From positions 1-63,034 of the forward strand of contig DYOQ01000007.1 in the NCBI GenBank assembly GCA_020720455.1: a stretch of 63,034 nucleotides of DNA. Direction: 5' to 3'. Positions within the stretch are counted from its first letter, which is position 1. Every line of letters begins with the position of its first letter. A program made the translations under genes and the position numbers. The notes beneath the pieces are model-generated. The model was not told where the DNA came from and ran no database searches. It was given only the letters and a program-made list of their open reading frames with translations. The stretch is from Bdellovibrio sp. (GTDB lineage Bacteria; Bdellovibrionota; Bacteriovoracia; Bacteriovoracales; Bacteriovoracaceae). Shown here piece by piece: positions 3,355 through 50,026 of the stretch.

Positions 3355-4479
3355 ATGAAACACATACGACAACTATCTAACGTAATCATAGAAGACTTAG
3401 AAAAAAAAATGATCTTTATTGGTGGGCCCCGCCAGGTCGGAAAGACTACCTTAGCAAAATCTTTGACAACGAATGAGGCCTATTTAAACTGGGATTTTTC
3501 TAATGACCGCCAAAAGATTTTAAAAAATGAGATTCCCACCCATTATAAAATTTTAGTTCTTGATGAAATACATAAATATAAGAATTGGAGGTCTCTCGTA
3601 AAAGGATATTTTGATAAATATCATGATAAGTTTAAAATTGTTGTAACAGGATCTGCTCGTCTTGATCACTTCAGAAAAGGTGGAGACTCGCTCATGGGGC
3701 GTTATCACTACTATCGCTTACACCCATTTACCTTGTCTGAGTTATCATTTTTAAAAGAGAAGAGAACAATAATTGATTTATTGAATTTTGGTGGATTCCC
3801 TGAACCGTTACTGGAACTTTCACAAAGAAAATTAAAACGTTGGCATAACGAGCGAATATATCGTGTGATTAATGACGACGTAAGAGATCTTACAAACATT
3901 AAAGAAATTTCGCAAATTGAGTTACTGGCCACCATTCTCCCAAGCAAAGTAGGATCACCTCTTTCATTTAAATCTATTGCGGAAGATTTACAAGTGGCAC
4001 CTCGAACGGTGGAATCATGGATTGGTATTCTTGATAATCTTTATTATTCGTATCGTATTGCCCCTTACGGCCCTCCTAAAATTCGAGCTGTAAAAAAAGA
4101 GAATAAGCTATATATGTGGGACTGGTCTTCTGTTGAAGAGATTGGCCCACGTTTTGAAAATATGGTTGCAAGTCATCTCCTTAAATATTGTCATTATTTA
4201 GAAGATTATCACGGTGAAAAAATGGAATTACGCTTTTTAAGAGATACAGATAAGCGTGAAATTGATTTTGTTGTAATAAAAAACAAAAAACCAATTTTTG
4301 CAGTAGAATGTAAAACTGGAGAAAAAGAGCTTTCTCCTTGGATTAATTATTTTAGGTTACGCACACCAATTCCTCTGTTTTTTCAAGTTCATCTAGGAAC
4401 CAAAGATTTTGGAGTGGCGGAAACCGGAAGAGCTATGCCATTTGAAAAATTTGTTACGGACTATCTTAAAGTAGATTAA
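3355..4479 (+). CDS. AAA ATPase of the AAA_14/DUF4143 family (intact copy 1)
   Basis: The 374-aa protein has a Walker A loop GPRQVGKT (residues 24-31), Walker B LVLDEIH (about 67-73), the sensor motif VVTGSARLD, and the family's G-R...RLHPFTLSEL and GGFPEP segments. A winged-helix-like stretch (APRTVESWI) follows. The C-terminal DUF4143 part has a PD-(D/E)xK-like pattern, EIDFVVI then IFAVECKTG. The cellular role of this widespread family is not established. It has the same length and P-loop position as the copy at 48863-49987 and shares its RKGGDSL..R...RLHP motif, so the two are close paralogs. It stands alone behind its own promoter and may be an independently acquired cassette. Confidence 0.85.
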   Translation: MKHIRQLSNVIIEDLEKKMIFIGGPRQVGKTTLAKSLTTNEAYLNWDFSNDRQKILKNEIPTHYKILVLDEIHKYKNWRSLVKGYFDKYHDKFKIVVTGSARLDHFRKGGDSLMGRYHYYRLHPFTLSELSFLKEKRTIIDLLNFGGFPEPLLELSQRKLKRWHNERIYRVINDDVRDLTNIKEISQIELLATILPSKVGSPLSFKSIAEDLQVAPRTVESWIGILDNLYYSYRIAPYGPPKIRAVKKENKLYMWDWSSVEEIGPRFENMVASHLLKYCHYLEDYHGEKMELRFLRDTDKREIDFVVIKNKKPIFAVECKTGEKELSPWINYFRLRTPIPLFFQVHLGTKDFGVAETGRAMPFEKFVTDYLKVD

Positions 4480-4498
4480 AAATAATTTTTAATGGACA

Positions 4499-5566
4499 CT
4501 AGTAAGTAAAGAATGAAAGATTTCTAATTTTATCAACATTGTCTAAAATCATCTTATCACCAGTAAATCTCATTCTGATATAGACATCAATCTTCGGCCT
4601 AACCTTTGATATTTTAACCATACTTGATAGATGATATAACTTATTTAGCACTGTAATTTTTTGCCTTCTATTAATAAGAAATGGCCGACTTCTTTGTAGC
4701 TCAACCCAAAGGCTTCTTGCTCCGATTTCTCCAAGTAAAAATTTAGCAAACGTTTGATAAATTAGAGGATCAGACTCAAAGTTATCACCAATTAAAACCA
4801 AATGATCTGGGATACCTGTTAAAAAGATAATATCTAAAAGGTGGTTCAGTTTATAGAGGCCTTGCATCTTAATATCTTTTGGAGTTAACTCTCTTTCAAG
4901 TACTGCCAGAATTTTTCTGTAATCCTTTAAAAAAATTCCAGCGCTATAAATATTATTCTGATATAGCCAATCTCTGATAGAGTCTTCATAAAAATGAGGA
5001 GATGCCGAAAGAATAAATGGATGAAGTCCTTCATTAATAAGCTGTCTAACAAGATCAACACTCTTTTGAACAGTTGGAAAATGCTCTAGTGGATTTGTAA
5101 GCGATTCATACATCTCTTTTGCTGTAGAATATTTTGTATCGACAAGAGTCTTATCGAAATCGCAAATCAAAACTTTTTTAGGGGTAACAATAGTTAATGG
5201 TATAAAGCTTCCAAGACAGAGTTCAATGCCATCTGAATATTTCGTCTCATATACCCTAATGGCGCTGAACTTTGAAACAATCTCTTTTCCAAGCGGAATC
5301 TTTATCTCTAAAACACCAAGACGATCAGTATCTAAATTTTTAGCAAATAAAATATCACCATTTTGATCAACACCTTCTAACTTAATCTGAAAGGTTAACG
5401 ACCTCATTAATACAAAAGATTGTAGAGGAAGCCTTGGCGTAAATGTCGGATACCCTTTAAATAAATCGTAATCAAACTCTTTTAAAGTTAGTGTCGCATT
5501 AATAGCGACGGAATCATTTTGCTTTATCGCAATAAAATGAACGATCGTTGGTCTTTTCATACTCAC
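4499..5566 (-). CDS. App1-like (DUF2183) HAD phosphatase, putative phosphatidate phosphatase
   Basis: The last gene of a minus-strand run after TIGR03546 and TIGR03545, starting right after the TIGR03545 stop. The start is GTG 5566 or ATG 5560; neither has a strong ribosome site. The 355-aa product has a beta-rich N-terminal half (1-130) and a HAD-type C-terminal half. Catalytic DFDKT is at D136/D138, motif II is LSASPHFYED (S187), a Lys lies near 239, and motif III is IGDNFESDP (D261, D266). The SASP, K and GD..E.D set is that of App1/DUF2183 phosphatidate phosphatases, which remove phosphate from phosphatidic acid. Substrate is inferred from family resemblance only. A lipid link would suit the membrane-associated neighbours. 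Confidence 0.68.
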   Translation of the reverse strand: MSMKRPTIVHFIAIKQNDSVAINATLTLKEFDYDLFKGYPTFTPRLPLQSFVLMRSLTFQIKLEGVDQNGDILFAKNLDTDRLGVLEIKIPLGKEIVSKFSAIRVYETKYSDGIELCLGSFIPLTIVTPKKVLICDFDKTLVDTKYSTAKEMYESLTNPLEHFPTVQKSVDLVRQLINEGLHPFILSASPHFYEDSIRDWLYQNNIYSAGIFLKDYRKILAVLERELTPKDIKMQGLYKLNHLLDIIFLTGIPDHLVLIGDNFESDPLIYQTFAKFLLGEIGARSLWVELQRSRPFLINRRQKITVLNKLYHLSSMVKISKVRPKIDVYIRMRFTGDKMILDNVDKIRNLSFFTY

Positions 5567-5568
5567 AC

Positions 5569-7518
5569 TTAAAATTTAAATTTTTTCTTAAGCCCTTTAA
5601 GTGCTTTTTTTCCACTCTCTTCTAATTTTTCTTCGGCCTTATTCATATTTTTGTTTTTAGCTTCAGTAATAAAATCAGCTGCTCCTTTTTGATTTTTATC
5701 CAAGACTCCTTCTAGCGATGCTAAATCTCCAGAATATTTTCCAGCAAACTTAGAGAGGCCCTCTGTCAAAAGTTTTTTAGGGCCATCTAACTTAGCATCG
5801 AATTTTGCTTGCAATTTCTTTTTTGCATCAGCTATTTTTTGTTCGACGGCAATTGAGACACCATCCTTGATCGCCGAAGCGATATTTGATTTTACCTGCA
5901 TATCCAAAGAGGTTAATTGACCTTTAAGTTTCGAATCAATAGTTAAAGGGTCTGCCTTAGCTGAAGCTGCCTCTAAAACACTCTTTAAAAAATTTGATTT
6001 TGCTTCAATATCATACTTATTTGCAGCGGCCTTAACTCCAAGCTGTAAATCCATGTACCCTTCGATAATTGGGCCGGCCACTAGCAATGAACCGGTGGAT
6101 TCTTTGATCCCAAACCTAACTCCTTTTCCATCAACAAAAATCAGATTTTCAATTGGAAAAGAGTTGACCTGAATGCGAATATCATCTCTAGCTATTCGTC
6201 GATGGTCTAATACAATTTCGCTCTTAAAACCAAGGATTTTGCTCTTGGGGAAATCACCAGACAACGCTATTTTCGTAGGAACACCTGCAACGTTTTGATC
6301 ACTTGTAATATCTGTAAAGACTCCTTTGATGTTTCCACTATTTTCTGAATATTTTGTTGTTGAACTAATTTTAATAGTTTTAAACCAAAAAAGAGGTAAT
6401 GCCTTCTTTTTACCAAAGCGATAATCAACCCCATGCTTCCTTGGATGAGTGGTAAACTCTTTTCCCTCATCTTTTTCTTTTGGAGCAGGCATATACTCTA
6501 AGGCCATTTCAACATACTTATAATTGGGCCCTAGATACGCAATCAAATAATTTCTAAAGAGCTGAGTAGCTAGGCCACTAACATCTAAATCTGGGATTTT
6601 AACTTTACTAGCAACTCTGGCATAATCTTCTTTTGCCAGCCTTTCAATCTCTTTTACTTCCGTCTGAACAAAATCGACATCTATTTTTAAAGCTGCTGAT
6701 GCTTCAGTAACACTCTTTTTTTTCTGCTCAATCTCTTTTATTAATTTATTTGCCTCTTCAATAGCAGAAATAATCTCTTGTGGATTTTTCAGTTTTTTAT
6801 CTTTTAGTGCCTTAATCTTATTGTTAAAATCTTCAAGACTACTCTTATTTGGCAAACCTTGAACCCTAGTTTTCCACTGCTCTTCTTTTTGTTTAACTAG
6901 CTCTTCTGCACTCTTTGCTCTCTTTAAAGATTCCAAATCATCATCTGTAAGCTCTAAGGCCTTTAACGGATCATCACCCTCTATTATCTGAGCTAGATCA
7001 CCTAAAACATTTCCTTGGTACTCGTTTTGTAATGTACTTGAAGCAACTTTATTTAAATCAGGAGAAGCGTATAGATCAGACACAACTAATGACAACGGCC
7101 CGTTACTTTTGCTTACAGTTACGGTTTTTTCTAAAGGAACTCCAAACTCAATCCCTTCAATAGATGCCTCATTAACAATAAACTTACCTCTTAAAAGTCC
7201 ATCCCAAGAAAAATGAAATTTCCACTCACCAATCCCTAAACGTTTTACTTTTCCATCTTCGCTCTTAAGTGAGACTCCCTTAATATCCATTAAACCATCA
7301 GTAAATGATGTTTTAAAGCTCTCAACCTTAACTTCACCACCAAGAAATTTTGTTCCATATTTTTCAATCGCCCACTTCACATGGTGATCAAAAAACAAAG
7401 AGAAATATAATGCTGGAAGAACTAAAATTATTGTTAGTGGAATTATCGCTTCGAACCTAATTGGGCCCTTTGCTTTTTTCACGTTATTCTTTTTATCACT
7501 ATTTATTTTTTCACTCAT
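5569..7518 (-). CDS. TIGR03545 family protein (membrane-anchored, AsmA-like)
   Basis: The 649-aa product begins with a Lys-rich cytoplasmic tail, then one membrane helix (about residues 27-47, EAIIPLTIILVLPALYFSLF). The body is mostly a periplasmic region of alternating beta and coiled-coil character, with long Glu/Lys-rich helices around 190-300 and a Lys-rich, helical C terminus. The length, N-terminal anchor and close pairing with a TIGR03546 gene match the conserved TIGR03545/TIGR03546 couple known from gamma- and deltaproteobacteria, whose function is unknown. The segment after the anchor (KFLGGEVKVESFKTSFTDG) recalls AsmA-like proteins that act in envelope lipid traffic; that comparison is inference. 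No enzymatic motif is seen. Confidence 0.75.
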   Translation of the reverse strand: MSEKINSDKKNNVKKAKGPIRFEAIIPLTIILVLPALYFSLFFDHHVKWAIEKYGTKFLGGEVKVESFKTSFTDGLMDIKGVSLKSEDGKVKRLGIGEWKFHFSWDGLLRGKFIVNEASIEGIEFGVPLEKTVTVSKSNGPLSLVVSDLYASPDLNKVASSTLQNEYQGNVLGDLAQIIEGDDPLKALELTDDDLESLKRAKSAEELVKQKEEQWKTRVQGLPNKSSLEDFNNKIKALKDKKLKNPQEIISAIEEANKLIKEIEQKKKSVTEASAALKIDVDFVQTEVKEIERLAKEDYARVASKVKIPDLDVSGLATQLFRNYLIAYLGPNYKYVEMALEYMPAPKEKDEGKEFTTHPRKHGVDYRFGKKKALPLFWFKTIKISSTTKYSENSGNIKGVFTDITSDQNVAGVPTKIALSGDFPKSKILGFKSEIVLDHRRIARDDIRIQVNSFPIENLIFVDGKGVRFGIKESTGSLLVAGPIIEGYMDLQLGVKAAANKYDIEAKSNFLKSVLEAASAKADPLTIDSKLKGQLTSLDMQVKSNIASAIKDGVSIAVEQKIADAKKKLQAKFDAKLDGPKKLLTEGLSKFAGKYSGDLASLEGVLDKNQKGAADFITEAKNKNMNKAEEKLEESGKKALKGLKKKFKF

Positions 7519-7533
7519 ATAGCTCTCCTCTAC

Positions 7534-8049
7534 CTAATAAAGTTCATTATATTTGTAATACCATTTATAAAGCGATGTCGTCTGAAGGGCCTTAAACAGT
7601 TTGGTCCCCTTTATTCTTGCCACTACTAGCTCGCGATATTTATTTACGAGATACTTTGTAATAAAAAATATAAATGGCGAAAGGAAAATTGCTACGACAA
7701 AAGATCCCATTACCACACTATTATTAAATTTAGAAAATGGGACAATTGGCATATTATACATAGTTGTATAGATTCCTTGAAACGCATCAACTTCTAGCAC
7801 CATTTTTCCAACTATATGAAACACTCCATCTAGTAAGTAGGCCGGCATCGCAAACGCAAACGCTGCAATAAACGCTGCTCCTATTTGAATCCTAAACATA
7901 AAAAGAAGAATCATTACAAGAATGGTCTGAGGAGAAAACGCAGGCGTTAACCCAAGAAAAAGACCGCAGACAACTCCAAAACTAATCGAAGTTGTCCCAA
8001 CATCTGAATTTAGTAGTTTTAAAAAGGCAAATAGTTGCTTTAGTATCAT
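7534..8049 (-). CDS. TIGR03546 family inner-membrane protein (DUF2062-like)
   Basis: The start is placed at ATG 8049, which has GGAG about 9 bases upstream; an in-frame ATG at 8073 has no ribosome site. The 171-aa product opens with LKQLFAFLKLLNSD, then three or four membrane helices (about residues 20-65 and 110-135) and a basic C-terminal tail. The early GTTSISFGVVCGLFLGLTP stretch resembles the DUF2062 core. It ends 15 bases before the TIGR03545 start, reproducing the known gene pair. A TATAAT box on this strand (8092-8097) lies about 43 bases upstream. Function is unknown; the neighbouring App1-like phosphatase suggests envelope lipid work, which is inference. Confidence 0.78.
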   Translation of the reverse strand: MILKQLFAFLKLLNSDVGTTSISFGVVCGLFLGLTPAFSPQTILVMILLFMFRIQIGAAFIAAFAFAMPAYLLDGVFHIVGKMVLEVDAFQGIYTTMYNMPIVPFSKFNNSVVMGSFVVAIFLSPFIFFITKYLVNKYRELVVARIKGTKLFKALQTTSLYKWYYKYNELY

Positions 8050-8108
8050 GGCAAAAACTCCAATGTAATACATGTTAAAATTTTATTTTTGATTATAGCA
8101 GTGACTAA

Positions 8109-8351: not shown

Positions 8352-8377
8352 GTAACACCACCAACCTTGGAACTAGT

Positions 8378-9997
8378 TTGGAAGAGATTCAACAACTCCC
8401 ACTTTTAGAGCTTATCGGCGATCCGATAGAAAATTTTTATCAACTTGGCCTAAAAGATAGAGAAAATATCAATATTTTAATTAACCACATGAAATCTTTG
8501 GCCAAAACGCCATGGCCTAAGCTTACCAACATAATAGAAAATACAATGCAGCTAACTGCAAGTTCTATCCTTGCTCAGTCTGAAATAGCAAAAAAGAAAA
8601 TCGCTGCTTATGCTGAAGGATTGGCAAAACCTACAAATGAGATTGTCTACACACTACTACTTCCGGAACTGCTATCGTGTATGTCTAACTGGTATCCTGA
8701 AATTCCAAGGCTTCTTTACGGCTGTTCAAGTTTTTTTGCACTCGATACAAAAACTAGTCGGCCCATTCATGCTCGAGTTTTAGATTTTTCATTAGTAGGA
8801 AGTTATGATCAGTTTGAAAGAGCGCTCATCACTAAATATACAGGAGAGGCAAAAATTTTTTCTTACTCATCAATAGGACTTCCATATCCATCACTTACTG
8901 CAATGAACGAACATGGTGTAACACTAGCACTTCATCAAAAATTTACCAATAAATTTGACCGAGCAGGGACCCCTATTTTTGAACTTGCCCACCAACTTAT
9001 TGCTAACGTAAAGGATAGGGACGATGCAATAAAATTTTTAGGAAGCTCAAGAACCCTTACTTGCTGGTGTTTTCTTTTAAGCTTTCCAGATGGCAAAATA
9101 CTTATCGCCGATTTAATGGGCAAAGAGTTAGTAAAAAAAGAGTTTACACTTGAATCAAATGAGGTTTTATACTTTAATAATATGCCACTAAGTAATGAGA
9201 TAAATCAAAACAGCATGCTACCTTATGGCATGGCAAACTATTGCCAAATGAGAGAAAATTCGGCCCAAATTATTAAAACAAAAATCTCTCAAAGTAATAA
9301 TATCTGCCAAGAGACAATGCTTAAAGAGATCGCGGCCATTAATAGTTCAAAGGGTGATGACTCTTCTAAATGGAACTTGTCTCCGACTACGCCATCAAGT
9401 TTAACTGTAGCAACGCTTGTTCCAACGCAAGGAAGTTCATCATACATTCCTGGAATGGCCCCCAAATTTTTTAATAATAAAATTTCAAGAATAGATGAGA
9501 TCTGGGAAGGCCCAAAACAACAGACGACTCTAACTACAACAACCATTGATCAACGTTACATTCAAGGGGTACGAAAACTCTCCCAGGCCCAAGCAGCATT
9601 TGATCTCGGAGATATTCAAGAGACATATCACCTATCTCAAATGGGAATCGCACTTTTAAAAAATTATCCTGAAGCAACAATTGGCATGTTTTTCTTTCTC
9701 GTTTACCAATTTATCCACGAATCAAATAAAAAATGCCAAGAACACCTTTTGGCCGAGTTTAAAAAAATTAGAGATAAACTTCCAAAATACTTAAGAGATC
9801 ATGCCTCACTTTTTATTATGAGACTTCAAATCATCACTACTAACGAGAGCGAGATTAGTGAAAACGATATTGAAAATGTAAATCTTAAACGAGTGTTAAA
9901 ACTTGAACAAAAAATTCCAAAAAGACTGCTCCGCAAAAGCGTTTCAAAAACTTTAACTCCAAGATATGAGCTACTTGATGTCATCGGAACAACATAA
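8378..9997 (+). CDS. C45-like Ntn-hydrolase / acyl-CoA:6-APA acyltransferase-like protein
   Basis: The reading frame is open from 8237, but that part runs antisense to the small membrane-protein gene. The conserved domain begins at LLELIGDPIENFYQLG, the usual first motif of this family, so I prefer TTG 8378, with GGA 7 bases upstream. The product is about 539 aa. RLLYGCSSFFALD contains the likely nucleophile Cys of the Ntn fold, followed by IHARVLDFSLVG, SSIGLPYPSLTAMNEHGVTL and RTLTCWCFLLSFPDGKI. The family includes isopenicillin N acyltransferase and related amide hydrolases acting on N-acyl bonds. No signal peptide is evident with this start. The last 150 residues are helical and without a known domain. 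The true substrate is unknown; the start choice is uncertain. Confidence 0.66.
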   Translation: MEEIQQLPLLELIGDPIENFYQLGLKDRENINILINHMKSLAKTPWPKLTNIIENTMQLTASSILAQSEIAKKKIAAYAEGLAKPTNEIVYTLLLPELLSCMSNWYPEIPRLLYGCSSFFALDTKTSRPIHARVLDFSLVGSYDQFERALITKYTGEAKIFSYSSIGLPYPSLTAMNEHGVTLALHQKFTNKFDRAGTPIFELAHQLIANVKDRDDAIKFLGSSRTLTCWCFLLSFPDGKILIADLMGKELVKKEFTLESNEVLYFNNMPLSNEINQNSMLPYGMANYCQMRENSAQIIKTKISQSNNICQETMLKEIAAINSSKGDDSSKWNLSPTTPSSLTVATLVPTQGSSSYIPGMAPKFFNNKISRIDEIWEGPKQQTTLTTTTIDQRYIQGVRKLSQAQAAFDLGDIQETYHLSQMGIALLKNYPEATIGMFFFLVYQFIHESNKKCQEHLLAEFKKIRDKLPKYLRDHASLFIMRLQIITTNESEISENDIENVNLKRVLKLEQKIPKRLLRKSVSKTLTPRYELLDVIGTT

Positions 9998-10002
9998 GTA
10001 AC

Positions 10003-10032
10003 TTGACGATAGTTTTAAACCTATGGGATAAT
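10003..10032 (+). promoter_or_regulatory. Candidate sigma-70 promoter of the porin gene
   Basis: TTGACG (10003-10008), an 18-base spacer and GATAAT (10027-10032) place the transcript start near 10039. That fits translation from ATG 10060 with its GGAGA ribosome site and argues against an upstream in-frame start at 10003. Confidence 0.55.
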
Positions 10033-10059
10033 ATTCTATTCTTTTTATGGAGAAAAAAT

Positions 10060-11295
10060 ATGAAATTACCAAACAGACTATTAACATCTTCTGCACTCTT
10101 ACTCGTTGTAGCATCAAACGTATGCGCCGAGGTAAAGATCACTCCGAGTATCTACTCAAGAGGAGGAATGACAAGATCAACTGATCTAAAATCAAGACAC
10201 ACTCTAGATAACGGTGATGATCGAAAAGATTTTAACCTTGGAGCATGGGGAGATGAATCAAACACAATTAGTGATGATTTAACGGAGCTCACAGCTAAAT
10301 TTGATTTAAACAGTAACTTCTACTACACATACGGCGTTGATATTAACGGTAATCGCCGATTTTTAGAAGGAAACGAGACAGCTGATCATAAATCGCTTGA
10401 TGAACGGTTAAACTTTTTAACTTTTAAAGATAACGATTTTTCTCTCTGGGTTGGACAAAATGCTTATCGAGGAGATGGTGATTATTTAACAAGAAATTTT
10501 CCATTTGATGAACACAACATGATGGGTGGAGGTGTTCGAGTAGAAAAAATGGGCCCAATTAATATTGAGTTTGCCTATGGAGAGGTTACACAAGGAGTCA
10601 CTGATCCAAAAGTTGTCAATTTGTTTATCAACAAAATTGAGTATCCACTTACAAACGGGAAACTTAAAACAAACCTTGAACTTCATAGAATCAATGCTAC
10701 AAGCGATACTAATGAGTCTAAAACATTTCTAGCTGGAGTCCAATTACAACGTTGGGGAATAAAACTTCTCGATGGAAATTTTTATCACATAATGCTAATT
10801 AATTACTCAAATGGATACGTCTATGGCGGACAGATGCAAAGCGGATACAATGAAATTAGCAAAGATCTAGACGAATCTAAAATTCTTGCACAGTGGGCCG
10901 GTGACTGGAAGTGGGCAAACGAAAAAGCGTTATACTTTACCGTTAAGTATCAAGAACATTCAGGTAATAATGACAACCAAAAATGGTCATTTGTAGATTA
11001 TTACGTGAGACCTGTTAAAAATGTAACGCCAAACACGGCCATAGGACTTGATCTAGCACAACGGTTTATTACCAAAGAGAATAAAGATTCAAATAAATCA
11101 TGGATGGAAAACGGAACCAATAGTAGAGTAGCGCTCATGGCATCTTATCACTTAAAAGATAAAATGTTTGAACTACCTTCAGTCTCACTCTTTGCTGGTA
11201 GAATATTTAAAGATAAACCTACCCAATTTTTTACAGATAAACCATCAGCAAGAGAAGAGGATTTTCTTCGCTTGAATTATGAAGTAGCGTTTTAA
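10060..11295 (+). CDS. Outer-membrane porin, maltoporin (LamB)-like
   Basis: The 411-aa product starts at ATG 10060 behind TATGGAGAAA. It has a signal peptide (MKLPNRLLTSSALLLVVASNVCA) and a body of alternating short polar and aromatic strands, ending in the C-terminal Phe typical of outer-membrane barrels (NYEVAF). The segment around residues 130-165 (FSLWVGQNAYRG...GGGVRVEKM) resembles the maltoporin strand that reads W-G-x-R-Y...G-x-G-V-E, so a carbohydrate-type porin is likely. Its stop abuts the stop of the convergent cti gene with no spacer. The barrel call is secure; substrate is not readable from sequence. Confidence 0.66.
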   Translation: MKLPNRLLTSSALLLVVASNVCAEVKITPSIYSRGGMTRSTDLKSRHTLDNGDDRKDFNLGAWGDESNTISDDLTELTAKFDLNSNFYYTYGVDINGNRRFLEGNETADHKSLDERLNFLTFKDNDFSLWVGQNAYRGDGDYLTRNFPFDEHNMMGGGVRVEKMGPINIEFAYGEVTQGVTDPKVVNLFINKIEYPLTNGKLKTNLELHRINATSDTNESKTFLAGVQLQRWGIKLLDGNFYHIMLINYSNGYVYGGQMQSGYNEISKDLDESKILAQWAGDWKWANEKALYFTVKYQEHSGNNDNQKWSFVDYYVRPVKNVTPNTAIGLDLAQRFITKENKDSNKSWMENGTNSRVALMASYHLKDKMFELPSVSLFAGRIFKDKPTQFFTDKPSAREEDFLRLNYEVAF

Positions 11296-15047: not shown

Positions 15048-15065
15048 AGTTAATGTGGAGAGATT

Positions 15066-39266: not shown

Positions 39267-39984
39267 AACCTACACCTTTGATATCGGTAACTCTAATCCA
39301 AGCTTTGGTATCCATATAGATGGAACCCTAAAATCTATCTACCCTATAAGCAAATGGGAGACACCTCCTACTAAATTTTGTGCGGTAAAATCTCAAGTAG
39401 GAAAACCGTTACCAGAAAAAATAGTTACCGAAATTAAAGATAATCTCGTTGAACTTCCAAAGTTACATAACGGAAAATTTCTTGATATGCCAGTAAACTA
39501 TCAGGACAGCTTAGGTGTCGATCGACTCTACTCTGCCTACTATATATTTAAAACAATGCTTCAAGCATACCATTCTATACTCTTAATTGATGCTGGAACT
39601 TTTACAACAATTGATCTTGTAAATAATTCTGGGTTTAAAGGTGGCCTAATCTTTCCTGGGATCAATCAATACCTAAAGGCCTATTGTGCTGGTTACAACC
39701 TACCACAGATTGAGTTACCAAAATTCAATTTAGAACAGATCAAAACCTTACCTACAACGACAACCTCGGCGATAACATCTAGCTTTATGTTACAAGCGGC
39801 AGCAGTTTTAGATCATCTTATTCACAATGTTCACCCAGATTTAATCATCGTTACAGGTGGCAAGCACGAAGTTTACAGAAACATTCTTGAAAAAATTCAC
39901 CCAACATCAAAAGTCAGCGTTTTGCCATCTCTAATTCATAACGCTCTTTTCTTTTTAGCTACTAATTCATCCCAGATTTCATAG
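39247..39984 (+). CDS. coaX: Type III pantothenate kinase
   Basis: The 245-aa protein carries the CoaX motifs of the acetate kinase-like fold: FDIGNSNPSFG (phosphate 1), NYQDSLGVDRLYSAYY, LLIDAGTFTTIDLV (phosphate 2) and GGLIFPGINQYLKA, then IVTGGKHE. The enzyme phosphorylates pantothenate, the first step of CoA synthesis, and is ATP- and monovalent-cation-dependent. The start overlaps panB by 20 bases (translational coupling). The 3' end overlaps the convergent, internally deleted DUF4143 gene by 49 bases. Confidence 0.88.
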   Translation: MANLSSKTYTFDIGNSNPSFGIHIDGTLKSIYPISKWETPPTKFCAVKSQVGKPLPEKIVTEIKDNLVELPKLHNGKFLDMPVNYQDSLGVDRLYSAYYIFKTMLQAYHSILLIDAGTFTTIDLVNNSGFKGGLIFPGINQYLKAYCAGYNLPQIELPKFNLEQIKTLPTTTTSAITSSFMLQAAAVLDHLIHNVHPDLIIVTGGKHEVYRNILEKIHPTSKVSVLPSLIHNALFFLATNSSQIS

Positions 39985-40646
39985 TAAGGAAGGATTAAAA
40001 TATCTCCTTCGCTATAGGCCTGCTCTCCTTCATATAGAAGAATAAGCGTGCTCAAGCTATTCTCTTTTTGAAACTCAAGAAGTGACGTAAGATCTTTTTT
40101 AACAATTTTTTTCTTTGCCTTAATTTCAATTGCATATAGAGGTTTTGATTTCTTAGATAAAATCAGATCAACTTCAAACTCACCTCTTTCAGTTCTCCAA
40201 AAATGAAATTCATAATCTGATTGAGCATAGATAGAAAAATTTCGAATCTCATTGATAAGCCATTGCTCAAACATTTTTCCTCTAACCTCCGGACGCAAAT
40301 TATCTTTTAAATTTCTCAATATGGAGTTAGTGATACCATTGTCACACATATAAAATTTAGAATGTTTCGAAAAATGAATTTCATTGGTTAGCTCTGGTAT
40401 CTTTTGAATCTCATCAATGAAGAAATACTTCATCTCTTTTTTATTTATTTGAAATTCAACATCTTTTCGAAACTGTTCTGGAGAAGAAAGATAACGACGA
40501 AAATACTCACTTTTTAAGAGATCAATTTCAAAATATTTCTCGTTAGAAAGCATGTGGCGAATAAGCGTGCTTTTACCGCATTGTCGAGGGCCAAGCCAAA
40601 GGGATGAAGCAGACTTATTTAGCGTTTGGAGCCGTTCAATATACAC
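39936..40646 (-). CDS. Internally deleted AAA_14/DUF4143 ATPase (remnant)
   Basis: A GTG at 40646 with GAGG upstream gives a 236-aa product beginning VYIERLQTLN, the normal family N terminus. Walker A is GPRQCGKS (19-26), Walker B FFIDEIQK (75-82). After LTNEIHF (about residue 92) the sequence jumps straight to SKHSKFYMCDNGITN, which normally lies some 150 residues later. The TGS/R-rich sensor part, the GGFPE region and the winged helix are gone, while the C-terminal nuclease-like part (GEFEVDLILS, YAIEIKAKKK) remains in frame. It is probably a deletion product without ATPase switching, though the frame is intact. The subfamily differs from the intact copies at 3355 and 48863. Its 3' end overlaps coaX by 49 bases. 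Confidence 0.7.
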   Translation of the reverse strand: MYIERLQTLNKSASSLWLGPRQCGKSTLIRHMLSNEKYFEIDLLKSEYFRRYLSSPEQFRKDVEFQINKKEMKYFFIDEIQKIPELTNEIHFSKHSKFYMCDNGITNSILRNLKDNLRPEVRGKMFEQWLINEIRNFSIYAQSDYEFHFWRTERGEFEVDLILSKKSKPLYAIEIKAKKKIVKKDLTSLLEFQKENSLSTLILLYEGEQAYSEGDILILPYYEIWDELVAKKKRAL

Positions 40647-40743
40647 AAATACCTCACTCCACAAAATGTAACATTTTATGGAGCTTGGTACAACAATAAA
40701 ATACCTAAAGTAATTATTAAACCTGACCGATACAGTTGTTAGG

Positions 40744-40878: not shown

Positions 40879-40892
40879 GAAATAGAGAGTGA

Positions 40893-42209: not shown

Positions 42210-42248
42210 ACTCTTTCCTAGATAAAGAAATTGGTATAGAACACTAAT

Positions 42249-43502: not shown

Positions 43503-45680
43503 AAGGTCATAATATTTTGGAAGGGCCCAAAGTTCACACGGAATGATCTCTTCTAAAACATGACAATGTTTTGCCAACATATTTGATTTTGGCATAAGCT
43601 TATCAGCAATATAATGGGCCTTCTCTTTATGGGCCCCTTTAAAATTTTCAAGATCACTCAAAATCTCTTTTGAACCTGAGCAAGTAGCAATTAAGGCCCC
43701 TTCTAACTTACCTAGAATTTCCTTCTCTACCACACTTTTCTCACCTATATCAGATTGAAGCTTAATCGCTTGACACAATTTAATTTTATAATCAATCGCC
43801 GCCGGAATTACAAAATGATTAATCATAGAAGTAAAAGTGTTAAACTCAATCTCTCGAATTGTATTATACCTTTCAATATGGATGTTATACCTAATCTTCA
43901 ACTCATTTGGCCTAAAAATTTTCTGATTGATTAAGAACTTTGATCCTTTCTCATCAATTAACACTTGAACAGCATCGGGAGTGGTTTTAAAATTTGGAAG
44001 GCCACGTTTTTTTGCCTCTTCAACCCACTCTTTACTATATCCATCGCCATTAAAAACTATTCTCTCAGCATTTTCCATCCACTTCTTCGTTAGCTTTCTT
44101 AATGCAGCATCAACGCTCATTCCATCTCTGTTTATCCACTCTTCAAGCAGACTATTTGATTCATCTAAAATTTCTGAAACGGCAGCATTTAAAATGGCAA
44201 GTGGAAACCCAATTGATTGATCCGAGCCAACCGCTCTAAACTCAAACCGATTAGATGTAAATGCAAATGGTGACGTTCTATTTCTATCAACATCATCTGC
44301 AAGAAGCGTTGCTAAATGATCAACCCCAACATCTAGCACTTTTTTTTCATCTGATGTAACATCGCCACCACTAATAAATTTTTCAAATATAGCTAGCAGG
44401 GCCTTTCCTAAATAAACAGAGATGATACTAGGAGGCGCTTCATTTCCTCCTAGTCTGTGATCGTTACCTGCACCACAAACACTCATTCTTAAAGCATCAC
44501 TATGTCGATAAACAGTCTCAACAATCATCGAAACAACTGCCAAGAATCTAGCAGTATCCATTCCTCCATCACCTGGATCTAAAAGGTTTGTTCCATGATC
44601 ATCCACCATTGACCAGTTCAAATGTTTTCCGCTTCCGTTAATATATGAGAATGGTTTTTCATGAAGAAGAACATGGAAATCGTGCTTGCTCGCAATGTTT
44701 CTAAGTTGTGCCATCAGCACTTGGTTATGATCTGCTGCCAAGTTTGCCTCTTCAAAAATAGGAGCAATTTCAAACTGGCCAGGAGCAACCTCGTTATGTC
44801 TAGTTTTAGATGGTATTCCTAAACGATAGAGTTCAACATCAAGCTCTTGCATAAAGGCCAAAACTCTAGCAGGAATTATTCCAAAATAGTGATCCTCTAA
44901 TTGTTGATTTTTCGCACTCATCGATCCAAAAAGCGTTCTACCTGACATCACCAAATCTGGTCTTGCAAAATAGAGCGCCTTATCTACAAGAAAATATTCC
45001 TGCTCGGCCCCACATGTAGCTTTTACCGATTGGACTTCTGTTTTCCCAGTCAAATTTAAAAACTTTGTCGCAACTTTATTGAGTCTCAAAGTACTTCTAA
45101 GAAGCGGGGTTTTTACATCAAGGGCATCACCATTAAATGAAACAAACGCTGTTGGAATACATAAAGTCTTACCGTTTGTACCCTCAATCAAAAAAAGAGG
45201 TGAGGTAAAATCCCAACTCGTATAACCTCTTGCCTCAAATGTTGACCTAGAATCACCATGTGGCAAACTTGAAGCATCAGATTCACCTTGCAACAACTGA
45301 CTAACACCCATCTGATCAATAGGGACTCCGTCATCTGTTAGTGTTAAAAATGAGTCATGCTTCTCTGCTGTTTGTCCTGTTAACGGTTGAAACCAATGGC
45401 AAAAATGTGTTGCACCTTTTTGCATTGCCCATCTAGTAACCTCTTTGGCAATTAACTCTACATCCTCTCTTGCTAATTTTTCACCACCCTTAGCAAGATT
45501 AACTATTTTATCTTTTATACTCTTGGGAATACCTTTCGCAGTTTTAACATCAAATGTGTTTTCTCCAAAATAATCAGATATCCTCAAATATTCACCAGCA
45601 CTATTTATCTGCTTTTTTCCCTCTCTAGGTTTCCTCGTTCCCAAAAATGCTCTCTTCTCAAACATGTGGCCCAAGCTCAT
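43488..45680 (-). CDS. glnN: Type III glutamine synthetase
   Basis: AAGGAG stands 6 bases before ATG 45680. The 730-aa length and motifs are those of GSIII: an N-terminal domain with THFCHWFQPLTGQTAEKHDSF, AEQEYFLVDK, RHNEVAPGQFEIAP, LLHEKPFSYINGSGKHLNWS, the Asn/Gly loop and NRTSPFAFTSNRFEFRAVG. GSIII forms dodecamers and makes glutamine from glutamate, ammonia and ATP; it is common in Bacteroidetes, cyanobacteria and some deltaproteobacteria. No glnB or ntrC is adjacent. A terminator-like hairpin follows the stop inside the convergent gene. Confidence 0.95.
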   Translation of the reverse strand: MSLGHMFEKRAFLGTRKPREGKKQINSAGEYLRISDYFGENTFDVKTAKGIPKSIKDKIVNLAKGGEKLAREDVELIAKEVTRWAMQKGATHFCHWFQPLTGQTAEKHDSFLTLTDDGVPIDQMGVSQLLQGESDASSLPHGDSRSTFEARGYTSWDFTSPLFLIEGTNGKTLCIPTAFVSFNGDALDVKTPLLRSTLRLNKVATKFLNLTGKTEVQSVKATCGAEQEYFLVDKALYFARPDLVMSGRTLFGSMSAKNQQLEDHYFGIIPARVLAFMQELDVELYRLGIPSKTRHNEVAPGQFEIAPIFEEANLAADHNQVLMAQLRNIASKHDFHVLLHEKPFSYINGSGKHLNWSMVDDHGTNLLDPGDGGMDTARFLAVVSMIVETVYRHSDALRMSVCGAGNDHRLGGNEAPPSIISVYLGKALLAIFEKFISGGDVTSDEKKVLDVGVDHLATLLADDVDRNRTSPFAFTSNRFEFRAVGSDQSIGFPLAILNAAVSEILDESNSLLEEWINRDGMSVDAALRKLTKKWMENAERIVFNGDGYSKEWVEEAKKRGLPNFKTTPDAVQVLIDEKGSKFLINQKIFRPNELKIRYNIHIERYNTIREIEFNTFTSMINHFVIPAAIDYKIKLCQAIKLQSDIGEKSVVEKEILGKLEGALIATCSGSKEILSDLENFKGAHKEKAHYIADKLMPKSNMLAKHCHVLEEIIPCELWALPKYYDLLFLR

Positions 45681-45736
45681 GAGATACTCCTTATTAAAAT
45701 AAGATAAAATAATAGCATAAGAGCTCTAAAACGAAA

Positions 45737-46429
45737 CTATAAACAACTAGCAGGTATCTGAATGATTTTTTCACTCAAGTATTGTGGGCGTTCGCAGTTA
45801 TTGATAATAATACCAACTGGGCATTTCCGATCTTCGACAATTTTTTTTAAAAACACAATACTCTCTGATCGAACGGTTGTACCAAATTTAATTTCAATTG
45901 GAATTAATCCCATCTCACCGTCGAGAAGTAAGTCGATCTCTGCCAGATGCTTCGTCCGAACAAAATAGAAATCAAGTAAAGATTTTTAAAAAATGACAAA
46001 TAAGCCCTGTATCTCGAAAAGAACCCTTGGGATTTTTTATAAACCCTTTAGTTGCATCACCGGCATTGAAAGATTGCCATTTTCGAAAAACAAAAGTCCC
46101 TTCCGCAATATCAAGATAGTTAGCAACAGTTGGTGAGGAAATGCCTAAACTAGCTGCTCACTGATTAATAACGGGCCCAGCTCATAAATTCCAACTCTTC
46201 CGGCCAAAGAGTCAGCGACCTCTTTTAATAGTTCAGGAGAGCTTGAACCAGAGAGTAAAAATTGGCCATTTCTTTTTCGCCTCTGATCGATGCGCACTCG
46301 CAAAGCAGAAAAAAGTTTTACCGACAACTGTGCCTCATCAATAACTATTGGATCTTCATACTGCGACAAGAAAAAATCTGGATCATTATTGATCATTTCA
46401 AAATCACTGCTACGCTCTAGTCAAAGAAA
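45737..46429 (-). pseudogene. Decayed AAA_14/DUF4143 ATPase gene
   Basis: Pieces of one DUF4143 protein can be read on the minus strand in several frames. An N-terminal piece (46145-46429) has DPIVIDEAQ (Walker B), FLLSGSSSPELLKEV and LAGRVGIYELGPLLISEQ but no Walker A. After a frame change comes SLGISSPTVANYLDIAEG through GSFRDTGLICHFLKIF (about 45985-46140). A third frame then gives AEIDLLLDGEMGLIPIEIK and CPVGIIINNCERPQYLSEKI up to TAG at 45737. At least a 5' truncation, two frame changes and two internal losses are needed. The left edge at 46429 is approximate. It lies between glnN and the secreted-protein operon. Confidence 0.78.
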
Positions 46430-46584
46430 GGTGCCTTTTTGAAATTGGTTCTGTATGTCGTGGAATTAAACCGACCATTTTTAAAGTGTGTATTTAAAAA
46501 TCGCCGGGGTCAATAAAAAATGTTGCCACATAAATAATTAGTTGTAATTAATTCACGCCATGCACAACTGCTCTCATTTTTTGA

Positions 46585-46590
46585 TATAAT
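46585..46590 (+). promoter_or_regulatory. Candidate -10 box of the secreted-protein operon
   Basis: TTGATATAAT ends at 46590, 56 bases before ATG 46647, and gives a TATAAT hexamer without a good -35. A GGGGT ribosome site precedes the ATG. The rest of the stretch from the pseudogene end to here shows no gene on either strand. Confidence 0.35.
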
Positions 46591-46646
46591 AATCTCTGAT
46601 TCTTACGTCTTGCAATTTATAATTGGCCAACTTAACGGGGTAACAG

Positions 46647-47336
46647 ATGAAAATTATTAAGAAAAAATCAATAATAGTGGCGATGACAGTGGTACTCTCT
46701 CTTCCTATTCTGGCAAATGGGGCAAGTAACAACAAACCAGTACCTCCTGAAAATGGATTAAATGGCCTGATTACAGATTTGAGTAAGGTCCTAACACCGT
46801 TTGATCCAAGAATTGATATCACCATGAGTATTGACTCAAAGAGAGGATTTCAAATTGAAAAACTTGATTCATTAATTGAAGTTGGGTTGCTAGATGAATA
46901 CACCAAAGATCTTTATACAAACGAAAAAACAAACACACTAAATACAACACTCGTAGTTGGTAGAGAAGGAATTCTTGGCCACCTTCACGCTTATGGTGAT
47001 GCCAAACTACTTCAGCTCGATATGACATTTACTGACCTAGAAGATAAAAACGTTACTTTAGACGCTATTGTAACATCAATAAATAGTCGGTACGAACAAA
47101 CATTTCATATTGATAAAGTAAGTATAACATTTACCAATCTAATCTCCTCGACTGCTCCAGATATCGTCATTGATGGAAAGTGCGATGCTACTTCTGAGTT
47201 TCTTAATGCTAAAAACACTATGTTAAAAAAAAGACCAGCAACTCATTTAGAAAAAATGAAAGAGTGTAGCTTTAAATTTACTTATAACAGACCAACTGGT
47301 GAGTACGTTTTTAAAACAAGACTTAACAACTTATAG
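46647..47336 (+). CDS. Secreted protein of unknown function, first of a three-gene operon
   Basis: The 229-aa product has a signal peptide with a basic start (KIIKKK) and cleavage near ANGAS. The mature part is predicted beta-rich (TTLVVGREGILGHLHAYGDAKLL, LDMTFTDLED, VSITFTNLI) with two Cys (GKCDA, KECSF) that could form a disulfide. I recognise no family. It is followed 13 bases later by a second and then a third exported protein gene, so the three probably act together in the periplasm or outside the cell. Confidence 0.62.
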   Translation: MKIIKKKSIIVAMTVVLSLPILANGASNNKPVPPENGLNGLITDLSKVLTPFDPRIDITMSIDSKRGFQIEKLDSLIEVGLLDEYTKDLYTNEKTNTLNTTLVVGREGILGHLHAYGDAKLLQLDMTFTDLEDKNVTLDAIVTSINSRYEQTFHIDKVSITFTNLISSTAPDIVIDGKCDATSEFLNAKNTMLKKRPATHLEKMKECSFKFTYNRPTGEYVFKTRLNNL

Positions 47337-47349
47337 GTAACAAGCAACA

Positions 47350-48090
47350 ATGCAAAAAAAAGAACTATTTTTTTTCATGATTCTTCTTACACTCTTTTGC
47401 GCATCAGCGTTTGCAGACCCGGTTGGATATAATCTAATTAACAAAAGATTTAATATCGATAAAGTTCTGTTTGAAAAATTGGGAGTAAAAGTCGTCCAGT
47501 GTACGACCAAAAGCTGGTTTAAGTTTGATGAATTAACCAGTGACAAACTTGGGATCTGTTTATACCAAGATTTTCTCCGTAAAAGAACGACTGGCCTTGA
47601 AAACGAAGAGACTGAACTTGTTTACACAACAACAGCAGACCCAGAAATACTAAGAACTGCTCAAATAAGATGGATTCCAGTTCCAAGGCAAGATAATTTT
47701 ATGAGAGCTGATTATGGTGTGCTCAAAAGTTCATACGTTTACTGGAAAGAATTTTTCAGACTTTTTTATCGGCCATTAAATCACAAAATCGAGATCACTT
47801 TTGAAGAACCTCTAACTCTTCAAAATGGGCCACTAAGATACTTACAGCACTTGCTTAAAAACAAACATAGCATTACAAAATTAGGCTTTGACCATAAAAG
47901 AGTTGAGAATAAAAATAGTGAGTGGAACTATTTTGGAGTTTTATCTATCTATACTAGTAATACAAAGATTCCTGATTACTCTATTGAATTAGAGCATAAT
48001 TTAAAACTTCGTTATATAAAAACTGGCGAAAAATTTGATGCTCATATCGAAGGTAACGATCTTGGCCAAGATATAGACGAGGTGGATTAA
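47350..48090 (+). CDS. Secreted protein of unknown function, second of a three-gene operon
   Basis: The 246-aa product has a signal peptide (KKELFFFMILLTLFCASAFA). The mature chain has alternating strands and basic/aromatic patches (SYVYWKEFFRLFYRP) and a very acidic C terminus (NDLGQDIDEVD). Two Cys (VVQCTTKSW and LGICLYQ) are likely disulfide-bonded. Its stop TAA shares its last base with the ATG of the next gene (TAATG), so translation of the two is coupled. No family is recognised. Confidence 0.62.
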   Translation: MQKKELFFFMILLTLFCASAFADPVGYNLINKRFNIDKVLFEKLGVKVVQCTTKSWFKFDELTSDKLGICLYQDFLRKRTTGLENEETELVYTTTADPEILRTAQIRWIPVPRQDNFMRADYGVLKSSYVYWKEFFRLFYRPLNHKIEITFEEPLTLQNGPLRYLQHLLKNKHSITKLGFDHKRVENKNSEWNYFGVLSIYTSNTKIPDYSIELEHNLKLRYIKTGEKFDAHIEGNDLGQDIDEVD

Positions 48091-48851
48091 TGAAGCTAAC
48101 TGTTTTTCTAGTATTAATCTGGCCTTTACTCCCATTTTCCCCTAGCTGTTATGCTAACGCTGATAGTTTTGTTGGATGCAAATATAAAGAAGATGAGGTG
48201 GCCGAATTATTAACGAAAGTGGCAATTTCAGATATGGAAGAGTTTGGCCAAATGCAGTACTCAAACATGGTTCAAACAGATATTGATACAATAACGACCA
48301 GTAAAAAAACTGAATACACGGCAACGATTGAAGGTTACATTCTACCTGGCAAACATACTCTTTTTACCATTCCAGTAATCAATCTTGGCTTTAACTTAAA
48401 TCAAAACGACATCGTATACATCTGCTTCCATGTCGATAGAGAAAACAAAGATAATAACCATCTAACGCTACTCTTTCTTCAAGGAAAGCACATTCGCAAT
48501 GAGAGTTTAAATATTTTTAATCTGCCACCCAAGGTAGTACCCTCTCCAACAACCACAAAACTTCAAACTATAGAAGGAATTGTAGATACTATTGTCGATG
48601 CGCTACCAACTCTTCCAATATTATCAATCCTCTTAGATTTTTTTAATTTATTCATTCACGAAGCTATGGATTTTCTCCATAAAGCAATCGATAAGATTAT
48701 TGGTTTAGGAGTAACAAAAGTTGTAATAAAACCATATGAACTAAACCTCTATTACGGTATGAAACTTCTAAATCAGATCATTATTCCTGGAAAACACCAT
48801 TCTGATCAAGACAACCCAGTCGTAAGTGGAAGAATCGAACAACAACCGTAA
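48090..48851 (+). CDS. Secreted protein of unknown function, third of a three-gene operon
   Basis: The 253-aa product has a signal peptide (to about SCYANA) and mature Cys in VGCKYKEDE and YICFHVD. Residues 65-140 form strands; residues 183-235 form a hydrophobic/amphipathic helical stretch (LPTLPILSILLDFFNLFIHEAMDFL) that could insert into or associate with a membrane. The C terminus is hydrophilic. No family is recognised. The start overlaps the previous stop by one base. Convergent with the intact DUF4143 copy 2. Confidence 0.62.
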   Translation: MKLTVFLVLIWPLLPFSPSCYANADSFVGCKYKEDEVAELLTKVAISDMEEFGQMQYSNMVQTDIDTITTSKKTEYTATIEGYILPGKHTLFTIPVINLGFNLNQNDIVYICFHVDRENKDNNHLTLLFLQGKHIRNESLNIFNLPPKVVPSPTTTKLQTIEGIVDTIVDALPTLPILSILLDFFNLFIHEAMDFLHKAIDKIIGLGVTKVVIKPYELNLYYGMKLLNQIIIPGKHHSDQDNPVVSGRIEQQP

Positions 48852-48862
48852 TAAAAATTAAT

Positions 48863-49987
48863 CTATGTTTCCAATTGGGCCAAAAAATTTCCAAGAGGGA
48901 AAATTTTGATATTTTTACTAGGTTCTAAAATCTTATCGGTATTTAGTACAATTTGAAATGATTTAAGAGGTGAAAGTTTTTGGTGATAATAATTAAGAGC
49001 TGGTTGCATATTCGTATCACTCAATTTCACTTCAACTAAATACTCTAATTTATTATTTAAGACAGTAGCAAAATCTATTTCCCGTCTCTCTTTGTCTTTA
49101 ATGTAAACAAGCTCTGCGCGCTCACCTAACGTATCAGCTAGAAAATGTGACCTCTTTAAGAGGTGACATGCGACCAAATTTTCCAACCTTGCAGCATCAC
49201 CATTTGTAACTCTTCCTGTATCAAAAAAGTAAACCTTTGGTTCTTTGACAATTGCCTTGGCAATATTTCTTGAATATGGCCGAACGATGAAAATCACATA
49301 TAAGTTTTCTAAAATTTGCAACCAATGCTTGACCGTATGTGGTGATACCATTAAATCTTCTGCCAAAGATTTATATGAAATCGGCCCACCGACCCTATCG
49401 GCCAAAAGATCGATAAGAATCTCAATACTTTTCACATCTCTTACCTTCTCTAAATCGAAAAGATCCTCTCTTAAAATCACATCTAAGTGACTTTTTCTCC
49501 ACATATTTGCGGACTTTACGCTCTCTTTAATAAAAGGTTCAGGAAAACCACCATACATCATAAGTTTTCGAACCGTCTCATCTGGTGATTTATGATTAAT
49601 CTCTTTTACACTGAGTGGATGCAACCTAAAAAGATGGTGCCTTCCAGCAAGAGAGTCTCCTCCTTTGCGATAAATATCCATCCTTGCTGAACCAGTGACT
49701 AATAGATGAGGTGGAATACCCTCAACGTCATAAACACCCTTAAGCCATCTTTTCCAATATCTCATTTTGTGAATTTCATCAAAAACTACTAACCCCGAAT
49801 CTCTATCCCACATTTTATTTGAGATAATTTTCCGGTGAGAAATATCATCAAAATTTAGATACTCAAACTTTGATTGAATCGTTTTTGATAGAAAAGTTTT
49901 ACCCACTTGGCGTGGGCCCATTAAAAGAGTTATTTTATCTTTTAAAGAATCTTCAATTGCCGGCAACAAGGTTCGTTTTATTATCAT
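48863..49987 (-). CDS. AAA ATPase of the AAA_14/DUF4143 family (intact copy 2)
   Basis: The frame is open to a TTG at 50032, but that part overlaps a promoter and a repeat, so I use ATG 49987. This gives 374 aa, identical in length to copy 1 at 3355-4479, with Walker A GPRQVGKT at the same residues (24-31). Walker B LVVFDEIHKM, LLVTGSARMDIYRKGGDSLAGRH, FRLHPLSVKEI, GGFPEP, a winged-helix stretch (VSPHTVKHWL) and the C-terminal EIDFATV/YLVEVKLS pattern follow. The two copies are clear paralogs. The start lies only about 4 bases after the predicted transcript start and has no ribosome site, so it may be a leaderless mRNA. Cellular role unknown. Confidence 0.82.
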   Translation of the reverse strand: MIIKRTLLPAIEDSLKDKITLLMGPRQVGKTFLSKTIQSKFEYLNFDDISHRKIISNKMWDRDSGLVVFDEIHKMRYWKRWLKGVYDVEGIPPHLLVTGSARMDIYRKGGDSLAGRHHLFRLHPLSVKEINHKSPDETVRKLMMYGGFPEPFIKESVKSANMWRKSHLDVILREDLFDLEKVRDVKSIEILIDLLADRVGGPISYKSLAEDLMVSPHTVKHWLQILENLYVIFIVRPYSRNIAKAIVKEPKVYFFDTGRVTNGDAARLENLVACHLLKRSHFLADTLGERAELVYIKDKERREIDFATVLNNKLEYLVEVKLSDTNMQPALNYYHQKLSPLKSFQIVLNTDKILEPSKNIKIFPLGNFLAQLET

Positions 49988-49997
49988 ACTGATAAAA

Positions 49998-50026
49998 ATT
50001 ATAACATAACACCACATTTCGAACAA
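49998..50026 (-). promoter_or_regulatory. Candidate promoter of DUF4143 copy 2, giving a near-leaderless mRNA
   Basis: On the minus strand TTGTTC (50026-50021), a 17-base spacer and TATAAT (50003-49998) make a good sigma-70 promoter. Transcription would start near 49991, about 4 bases before ATG 49987. The promoter directly abuts the palindromic element at 50028-50087. Confidence 0.5.

What the first reader, a model, noticed from the sequence alone, without database searches (positions are those of the whole stretch)
3355..50026. Four DUF4143 ATPase loci at different stages of decay within 47 kb
Two intact paralogs of equal length (3355-4479 and 48863-49987), one frame-preserving deletion (39936-40646) and one many-lesion pseudogene (45737-46429) lie in this window. 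This density and decay series suggests repeated gain and loss, as for a mobile or conflict-related system. The function of the family is not established.
Basis: partly seen in the sequence, partly recalled or inferred. Interest (0 to 1): 0.55.

Follow-up and report, generated by a model that had tools for sequence, protein, structure and literature searches.

The report
Self-controlled nuclease genes, repeatedly acquired
The four DUF4143 genes in this stretch belong to a very large, poorly understood family of candidate virus-defence genes that bacteria gain and lose one at a time, and most of these genes seem to carry their own private mirror-image control sites, often a pair set three turns of the DNA helix apart, which makes their function directly testable.

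Summary
In detail: two intact copies, one in-frame deletion and one frameshifted relic of a DUF4143 ATPase lie in the window. They are 4 of 41 domain matches (about 35 full-length genes) in a 2.7 Mb genome. The copies are not recent duplicates: the best paralogue pair is 58% identical, and on a family tree the own copies scatter like shuffled labels. Three of the four loci sit in a gene block that relatives keep without them. Repeated gain and decay is therefore supported, by lateral acquisition rather than transposition. The protein is an NLR/STAND-like ATPase with a winged helix plus a PD-(D/E)XK nuclease with conserved active site. PADLOC lists it as defence candidate PDC-S01. New here: about half of the genes carry detectable palindromic sites over their own, often leaderless, promoter, in many cases as two copies 32 bp apart. 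The pattern holds in other genomes, phyla and a distant Bacteroidota branch; the sites differ between paralogues, show compensatory changes and travel with the gene. Best explanation: a self-contained, autorepressed STAND-type nuclease, probably for conflict with mobile DNA. Autoregulation is strongly inferred. Defence, and which domain binds the sites, is unproven.

The parts
3355..4479 (+). Copy 1, intact: STAND-like ATPase (res. 1-135), helical part (136-184), winged helix (185-240), PD-(D/E)XK nuclease domain (about 241-374)
   Evidence: AF2 model pLDDT 94.7; all key residues present
3274..3337 (+). Twin control site of copy 1: two 32-nt repeats with spacing exactly 32 (3274-3305, 3306-3337), over TTGACT (3286-3291) and TAAAAT (3308-3313)
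   Evidence: conserved in L039 although the flanks are not
48863..49987 (-). Copy 2, intact, 374 aa
50028..50087 (-). Twin palindromic control site of copy 2: 22-nt repeats spaced 32 (50034, 50066), whole element an inverted repeat of 30-nt arms
39936..40646 (-). Copy 3: in-frame deletion of about 128 residues (ATPase end and winged helix); nuclease motifs kept
40646..40693 (-). Decayed palindromic control site of copy 3, alignable with the intact site of relative L174
   Evidence: score 61, shuffled maximum 37; 20-nt arms, 80%
45737..46429 (-). Copy 4: relic with frameshifts, stops and missing blocks
46471..46507 (-). Possible remnant of the control site of copy 4 (15-nt arms, 87% complementary)
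   Evidence: no relative aligned well there

Best explanation
Each DUF4143 gene is a self-contained, laterally acquired one-gene unit: promoter with its own palindromic operators plus a gene for an NLR/STAND-like ATPase fused to a PD-(D/E)XK nuclease. In the resting state the protein, as dimers or a small oligomer, sits on its private sites (in many members two, 32 bp or three helical turns apart, on one face of the DNA) over the -35/-10 region and keeps its own expression low. An unknown trigger, most likely invading DNA or a phage product, switches the ATPase. The protein leaves the operators, is made in quantity and cleaves nucleic acid. Copies are picked up from other bacteria and plasmids, kept under purifying selection for a time, then decay. 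Shown by sequence: architecture, conserved active sites, site geometry, private and co-varying sites, co-transfer of site and gene, dispersed phylogeny. Inferred: that the protein itself binds the sites, that binding represses, the trigger, and the nuclease target.
For: Domains and active sites. PADLOC PDC-S01. Inverted repeats upstream: own 14 of 33 vs 3 of 191 control genes, other genomes 26 of 67 vs 4 of 243. Spacing: in held-out genomes 42 of 62 upstreams with a direct repeat have lag exactly 32 and 53 of 62 have lag 31-33; in a distant branch 12 of 12 have lag 32 or 33; controls from those loci 2 of 26 at lag 32, earlier controls 2 of 61. Compensatory double changes 71 vs 24.7 (sd 4.4, max 40 of 1000) in the null. 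Upstream 90 bp conserved in 31 of 56 homologue pairs vs 1 of 55 further upstream and 1 of 51 downstream. Two operators searched genome-wide occur only at DUF4143 promoters. Promoter overlap and short or absent leader. Purifying selection. Scattered phylogeny. Absent at syntenic places.
Against: No binding or repression was measured. The winged-helix region does not predict operator similarity better than other domains, so the reader of the sites is not identified. 86 of 191 upstreams, and 11 of 33 own copies (one because of a misassigned start), show neither signal at the thresholds used. Outside the clade near copy 1 the exact 32-bp twin arrangement is rarer (11 of 119 vs 44 of 72). Many lag-32 upstreams share sequence (48 of 55 in one single-linkage cluster), so counts are not independent. 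Own-genome copies do not sit in defence islands, and no viral relative was found with one close query.
Confidence: 0.6

Rival explanations
1. The palindromes are the family's DNA target rather than (or besides) an operator: the nuclease recognises and cuts or marks its own site, as in homing or addiction, and promoter overlap is secondary.
For: Sites are long palindromes like those of PD-(D/E)XK restriction dimers; the nuclease domain resembles cOA-activated and restriction nucleases; the best single column associated with operator similarity lies in the nuclease domain (position 298).
Against: Strict overlap with -35/-10 and proximity to the start codon. A nuclease-dead own copy (L031:1631-2911; Q and S in place of E318 and K320) keeps one of the strongest twin sites. 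The position-298 signal was not controlled for phylogeny, and tree-independent pairs show no nuclease-domain effect.
Confidence: 0.15
2. The sites are bound by a separate host regulator that controls these genes.
Against: Sites differ between paralogues in one genome yet keep geometry; two tested operators occur genome-wide only at DUF4143 promoters; sites move with the gene across phyla; no recurring neighbour gene.
Confidence: 0.1
3. Lineage-specific duplication followed by decay; no transfer.
For: Many copies in one genome; decay series in the window.
Against: Best paralogue identity 58%, median 25%; own copies scattered on the tree as if shuffled; copy 1 is 83% identical to a gene in another genome with different flanks.
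Confidence: 0.05
4. The genes are simple transcription regulators or housekeeping ATPases, not conflict genes.
For: Winged helix present; self-operators; neighbours are ordinary genes.
Against: Catalytic E268, D304, E318, K320 kept in nearly all homologues; patchy distribution 0-35 copies; plasmid carriage; PADLOC candidate.
Confidence: 0.15

Closest known systems
PDC-S01 (PADLOC phage-defence candidate; Pfam AAA_14 PF13173 + DUF4143 PF13635; COG1373 by recall)
   Same: Sequence models match six diverse own copies; ATPase fused to PD-(D/E)XK, as described in PMC12988326 (passages)
   Different: No source found describes operators, leaderless promoters or private palindromes; those are new here
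Archaeal STAND-like ATPases SSO1545 (2fna) and PABY2304 (2qen)
   Same: Best structural matches over residues 1-262: Z 13.3 (rmsd 3.4, 239 aligned) and Z 14.0 (rmsd 3.2, 234 aligned)
   Different: No C-terminal match to our nuclease domain in those alignments (aligned range ends at 261-262)
Can1/Can2/Cdn1/Card1 CRISPR-ancillary DNA nucleases and type II restriction enzymes
   Same: PD-(D/E)XK domain; best matches Z 8.1-8.5 (rmsd 3.2-3.6, 122-128 aligned) for Can2, Can1 (6sce) and Cdn1, Card1 Z 7.3, then restriction enzymes Z about 6-7
   Different: Those use CARF or other sensors; here the regulator is an NLR-like ATPase
Autoregulated toxin-antitoxin operons and RM control (C) proteins (recalled)
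   Same: Palindromic operators over the own promoter, specific to each module
   Different: Here a single gene, no partner gene recurring

Membership tests
PDC-S01 / AAA_14+DUF4143 | Profile matches over most of the protein | tested here: met
   (102 of 102 homologues match both Pfam models)
PDC-S01 / AAA_14+DUF4143 | Anti-phage activity | not testable with these tools
PD-(D/E)XK nuclease superfamily | E...D...ExK active-site residues | tested here: met
   E268, D304, E318, K320 kept in 192-196 of 197 homologues per site; 32 of 34 own copies keep all four
PD-(D/E)XK nuclease superfamily | Restriction-endonuclease-like fold | tested here: met
   Domain model pLDDT 93.9; top structural matches are such nucleases, Z up to 8.5; sequence match to Card1 E 3.8e-4. 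Foldseek alone gave no E below 0.001
STAND / NLR-type NTPase | NBD, helical and winged-helix arrangement | tested here: met
   Z 13-14 to SSO1545 and PABY2304, about 11 to CED-4 and plant NLRs; NB-ARC or nSTAND3 matches in 9 and 14 of 102
STAND / NLR-type NTPase | Separate C-terminal sensor domain (repeats) | tested here: not met
   All 374 residues are accounted for by ATPase, winged helix and nuclease; so 'STAND-like', not filed as STAND
Transposable element | Conserved sequence at both ends of the unit | tested here: not met
   Upstream 31 of 56 pairs, downstream 1 of 51
Type II toxin-antitoxin | Two-gene operon with a recurring partner | tested here: not met
   No Pfam family recurs beyond 2 of 55 neighbours in the own genome; next gene mostly convergent, 22 of 32
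Autoregulated gene | Product binds its own operator | not testable with these tools
   Sites shown by sequence only

The most novel reading that the evidence does not exclude
One of the most common defence candidates in prokaryotes (PDC-S01) works as an orthogonal set of self-recognising repressor-nucleases: dozens of paralogues per genome, each with a private palindrome, often a pair at a fixed three-turn spacing, where release from the palindrome couples ATPase switching to expression and to nuclease attack. That would be a one-gene alarm circuit in which the operator is the lock, without a separate antitoxin or regulator.
Probability: 0.25. Interest if true: 0.8.

Novelty: new variant of a known kind. 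Interest (0 to 1): 0.62.

Why it matters
A held paper ranks PDC-S01 as the fourth most common defence across prokaryotes, with experimental validation still pending for most PDCs (PMC12988326, passages). A predicted self-operator gives a direct handle: a defined 60-bp DNA ligand for each protein, a reporter for the signal that releases it, and a way to read the evolution of DNA specificity in hundreds of natural pairs. It could also explain how single genes hop between phyla and are controlled at once in a new host: the control region travels with them.

Tried and rejected
Considered: recent duplication (rejected); transposon ends (rejected); operon partner or antitoxin (none); palindromes as terminators, RNA hairpins or dispersed repeats (rejected: they overlap -35/-10, the two tested are private, and they differ between copies). 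Tried: does the winged helix predict the operator? No clear answer: the nuclease domain looked best over all pairs, but in 93 tree-independent pairs no domain stood out except the N-terminal ATPase, which is linked to the upstream DNA. A first compensatory count with slid partners was not comparable and was replaced. A close-relative search of viral contigs found none; the phage collection gave 6 unannotated records. Alignment of the region upstream of copy 4 with relatives gave nothing convincing. Locus 1 could not be tested by synteny because its neighbour gene is absent in 30 relatives. The fold searches listed no relative of the whole three-part architecture, which is no evidence that none exists. 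Rows dropped: two non-family ORFs (L129:16868, L038:10190), 20 of 230 hits lacked a Walker A or start and 2 of 208 were duplicates; 197 were full length and 191 had usable upstream DNA. Start codons were chosen by rule; L031:1631 got a wrong start, which hides its strong site (seen).
Full report
WHAT IS THERE. The four loci are real. Copy 1 (3355-4479, +) and copy 2 (48863-49987, -) are intact, 374 aa each, with AAA_14 and DUF4143 domains. Copy 3 (39936-40646, -) lacks about 128 residues in frame. Copy 4 (45737-46429, -) is a relic in three blocks and two frames. The whole genome (2.70 Mb, 92 contigs) has 41 DUF4143 matches. At ORF level there are about 35 full-length genes plus fragments. Some fragments lie at contig ends or scaffold gaps and may be assembly effects.

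GAIN AND LOSS. Among 39 relatives, 24 have matches and copy number runs from 0 to 35. In a phylum sample 103 of 191 have a match at E 1e-20; the search scored at most 18 candidates per genome there but saw up to 84 first-look candidates. Own copies are far apart: best pair 58% identity, median 25% over 437 long pairs. On a tree of 197 proteins (quick method, so single branches are weak) the 34 own copies need 31 label changes; shuffled labels need 31.9. Copy 1 is 83% identical to a gene in Bdellovibrionales bacterium GWA2_49_15, but only the gene and about 70 bp before it align, not the neighbours. The window's MurD-like, methyltransferase, glutamine synthetase and LysR genes form a block kept in relatives. 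In 17 fetched relative regions, 14 of them with both glutamine synthetase and LysR genes, no DUF4143 match was found, including two genomes (G017, G168) with many copies elsewhere. So loci 2, 3 and 4 are insertions on this lineage, or losses everywhere else.

THE PROTEIN. AlphaFold2 gives a confident model (pLDDT 94.7): ATPase, helical part, winged helix, and a C-terminal domain. Residues 1-262 match archaeal SSO1545 and PABY2304 (Z 13-14) and, lower, CED-4 and plant NLRs (Z about 11). The C-terminal domain alone matches Can2, Can1 and Cdn1 nucleases (Z 8.1-8.5) and then restriction enzymes; those Z values are modest, but most of the best rows are known or putative PD-(D/E)XK nucleases (by their titles and recall). 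E268, D304, E318 and K320 are kept in 196, 194, 192 and 194 of 197 homologues. PADLOC calls the family PDC-S01. Close lineages show purifying selection: dN/dS about 0.05 to 0.09 in three unsaturated pairs of other genomes; for copy 1 against GWA2_49_15 pN is 0.10 and pS 0.84, saturated.

THE CONTROL SITES. Reading upstream DNA of all own copies showed palindromes next to the start. Against control genes from the same loci, inverted repeats of score 12 or more occur in 14 of 33 own upstreams vs 3 of 191, and in 26 of 67 from other genomes vs 4 of 243. Many are two copies of one site. The idea of a 32-bp spacing came from the own copies; in held-out genomes 62 of 158 upstreams have a direct repeat of at least 15 in 22, 42 of these at lag 32 and 53 at lag 31-33. 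In a distant branch (L097-L118, mainly Bacteroidota, other promoter type) 12 of 17 non-redundant upstreams have such a repeat, all at lag 32 or 33; controls from those loci show 26 of 136 with a repeat, 2 at lag 32. Upstreams chosen by lag 32 alone are palindromic (score 10 or more) in 41 of 55, against 8 of 61 control upstreams with a direct repeat. An independent repeat tool finds spacing 32 at both intact window copies. Between homologues, palindrome positions that change on both sides stay complementary 71 times (48 do not; 217 further positions changed on one side only), against 24.7 (sd 4.4) complementary in a null. The sites overlap promoters: 80 of 191 family upstreams have a strong -35/-10 pair vs 43 of 434 controls, and the median distance from -10 to the start codon is 8 bp vs 37, so many transcripts should have almost no leader. 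The element is the unit that travels with the gene: 31 of 56 homologue pairs share it, 1 of 55 share the stretch before it, 1 of 51 the stretch after the gene. Two operators searched in the whole genome with up to 3 mismatches occur only at their own promoter, plus one sister DUF4143 gene on C50.

LIMITS. Not all copies have it: by either signal 105 of 191 (own 22 of 33) vs 28 of 434 controls. The 32-bp twin is strongest in the clade of copy 1 (44 of 72) and rarer elsewhere (11 of 119); several others have one palindrome over the -10. Most lag-32 upstreams are linked by some sequence similarity. Which domain reads the site is open.

DECAY OF SITES. Copy 3's site aligns with that of L174 (score 61, shuffled maximum 37) but its arms have drifted (80%). 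Gene and operator seem to decay together.

CONTEXT. Own copies stand alone among ordinary genes: no family recurs beyond 2 of 55 neighbours, and very few neighbours look like defence genes. Relatives of copy 1 occur in 334 plasmid records, 134 of them on plasmids typed as conjugative, and relatives of L124 in 499; of the eight plasmid stretches read, three have it beside or near a replication gene and three beside or near an integrase, one of them both.

LITERATURE. Passages read: PMC12988326 and PMC13356809 on PDC-S01 prevalence and one line of PMC4406477. Searches for DUF4143, COG1373, PDC-S01, PF13635, PF13173, guilt-by-embedding and two operator-related term sets showed nothing on such operators in listings; subscription papers are mostly not held.

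VERDICT. The decay series is real and fits repeated lateral gain. The larger find is a widespread self-operator with a fixed three-turn geometry in many members, pointing to autorepressed single-gene STAND-like nucleases.

Noticed in passing
L031:1557-2911: Own DUF4143 copy with nuclease residues lost (E318 to Q, K320 to S) but one of the strongest twin palindromes, directly before a GTG start
   Followed up: partly
L126:9715-11363 (G000:C18): A nuclease-dead copy (9922-11100) lies between near-identical direct repeats of about 50-60 bp (88-92%) and beside two further DUF4143 genes; a scaffold gap follows
   Followed up: no
L120, L126, L127, L033 and the L034/L134 junction: Exact 55-bp repeats 155 bp apart or at contig ends near DUF4143 genes look like assembler k-mer overlaps around 100-N scaffold gaps, not biology
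   Followed up: partly
L123:15027-15182, L132:450-605, L132:8472-8684, L131:87-207, L131:18861-19001: Stretches of about 120-155 bp shared at 76-79% identity between contigs, outside DUF4143 genes
   Followed up: no
L133:474-1198: Array of diverged tandem repeats (about 80% identity) inside or beside an ORF of 646 aa next to a DUF4143 gene
   Followed up: no
46647-48851: Three ORFs between glutamine synthetase and copy 2, without Pfam match and absent at this place in relatives
   Followed up: partly
L101:5901, L107:5931, L113:5877, L114:5700: Bacteroidota branch with an altered nuclease motif (FE[IVL]GG[KR]) that keeps twin sites next to a TAnnTTTG promoter element (name recalled)
   Followed up: partly
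L339, L341, L342 (plasmids): Plasmid-borne relatives beside or near repC or repA
   Followed up: no
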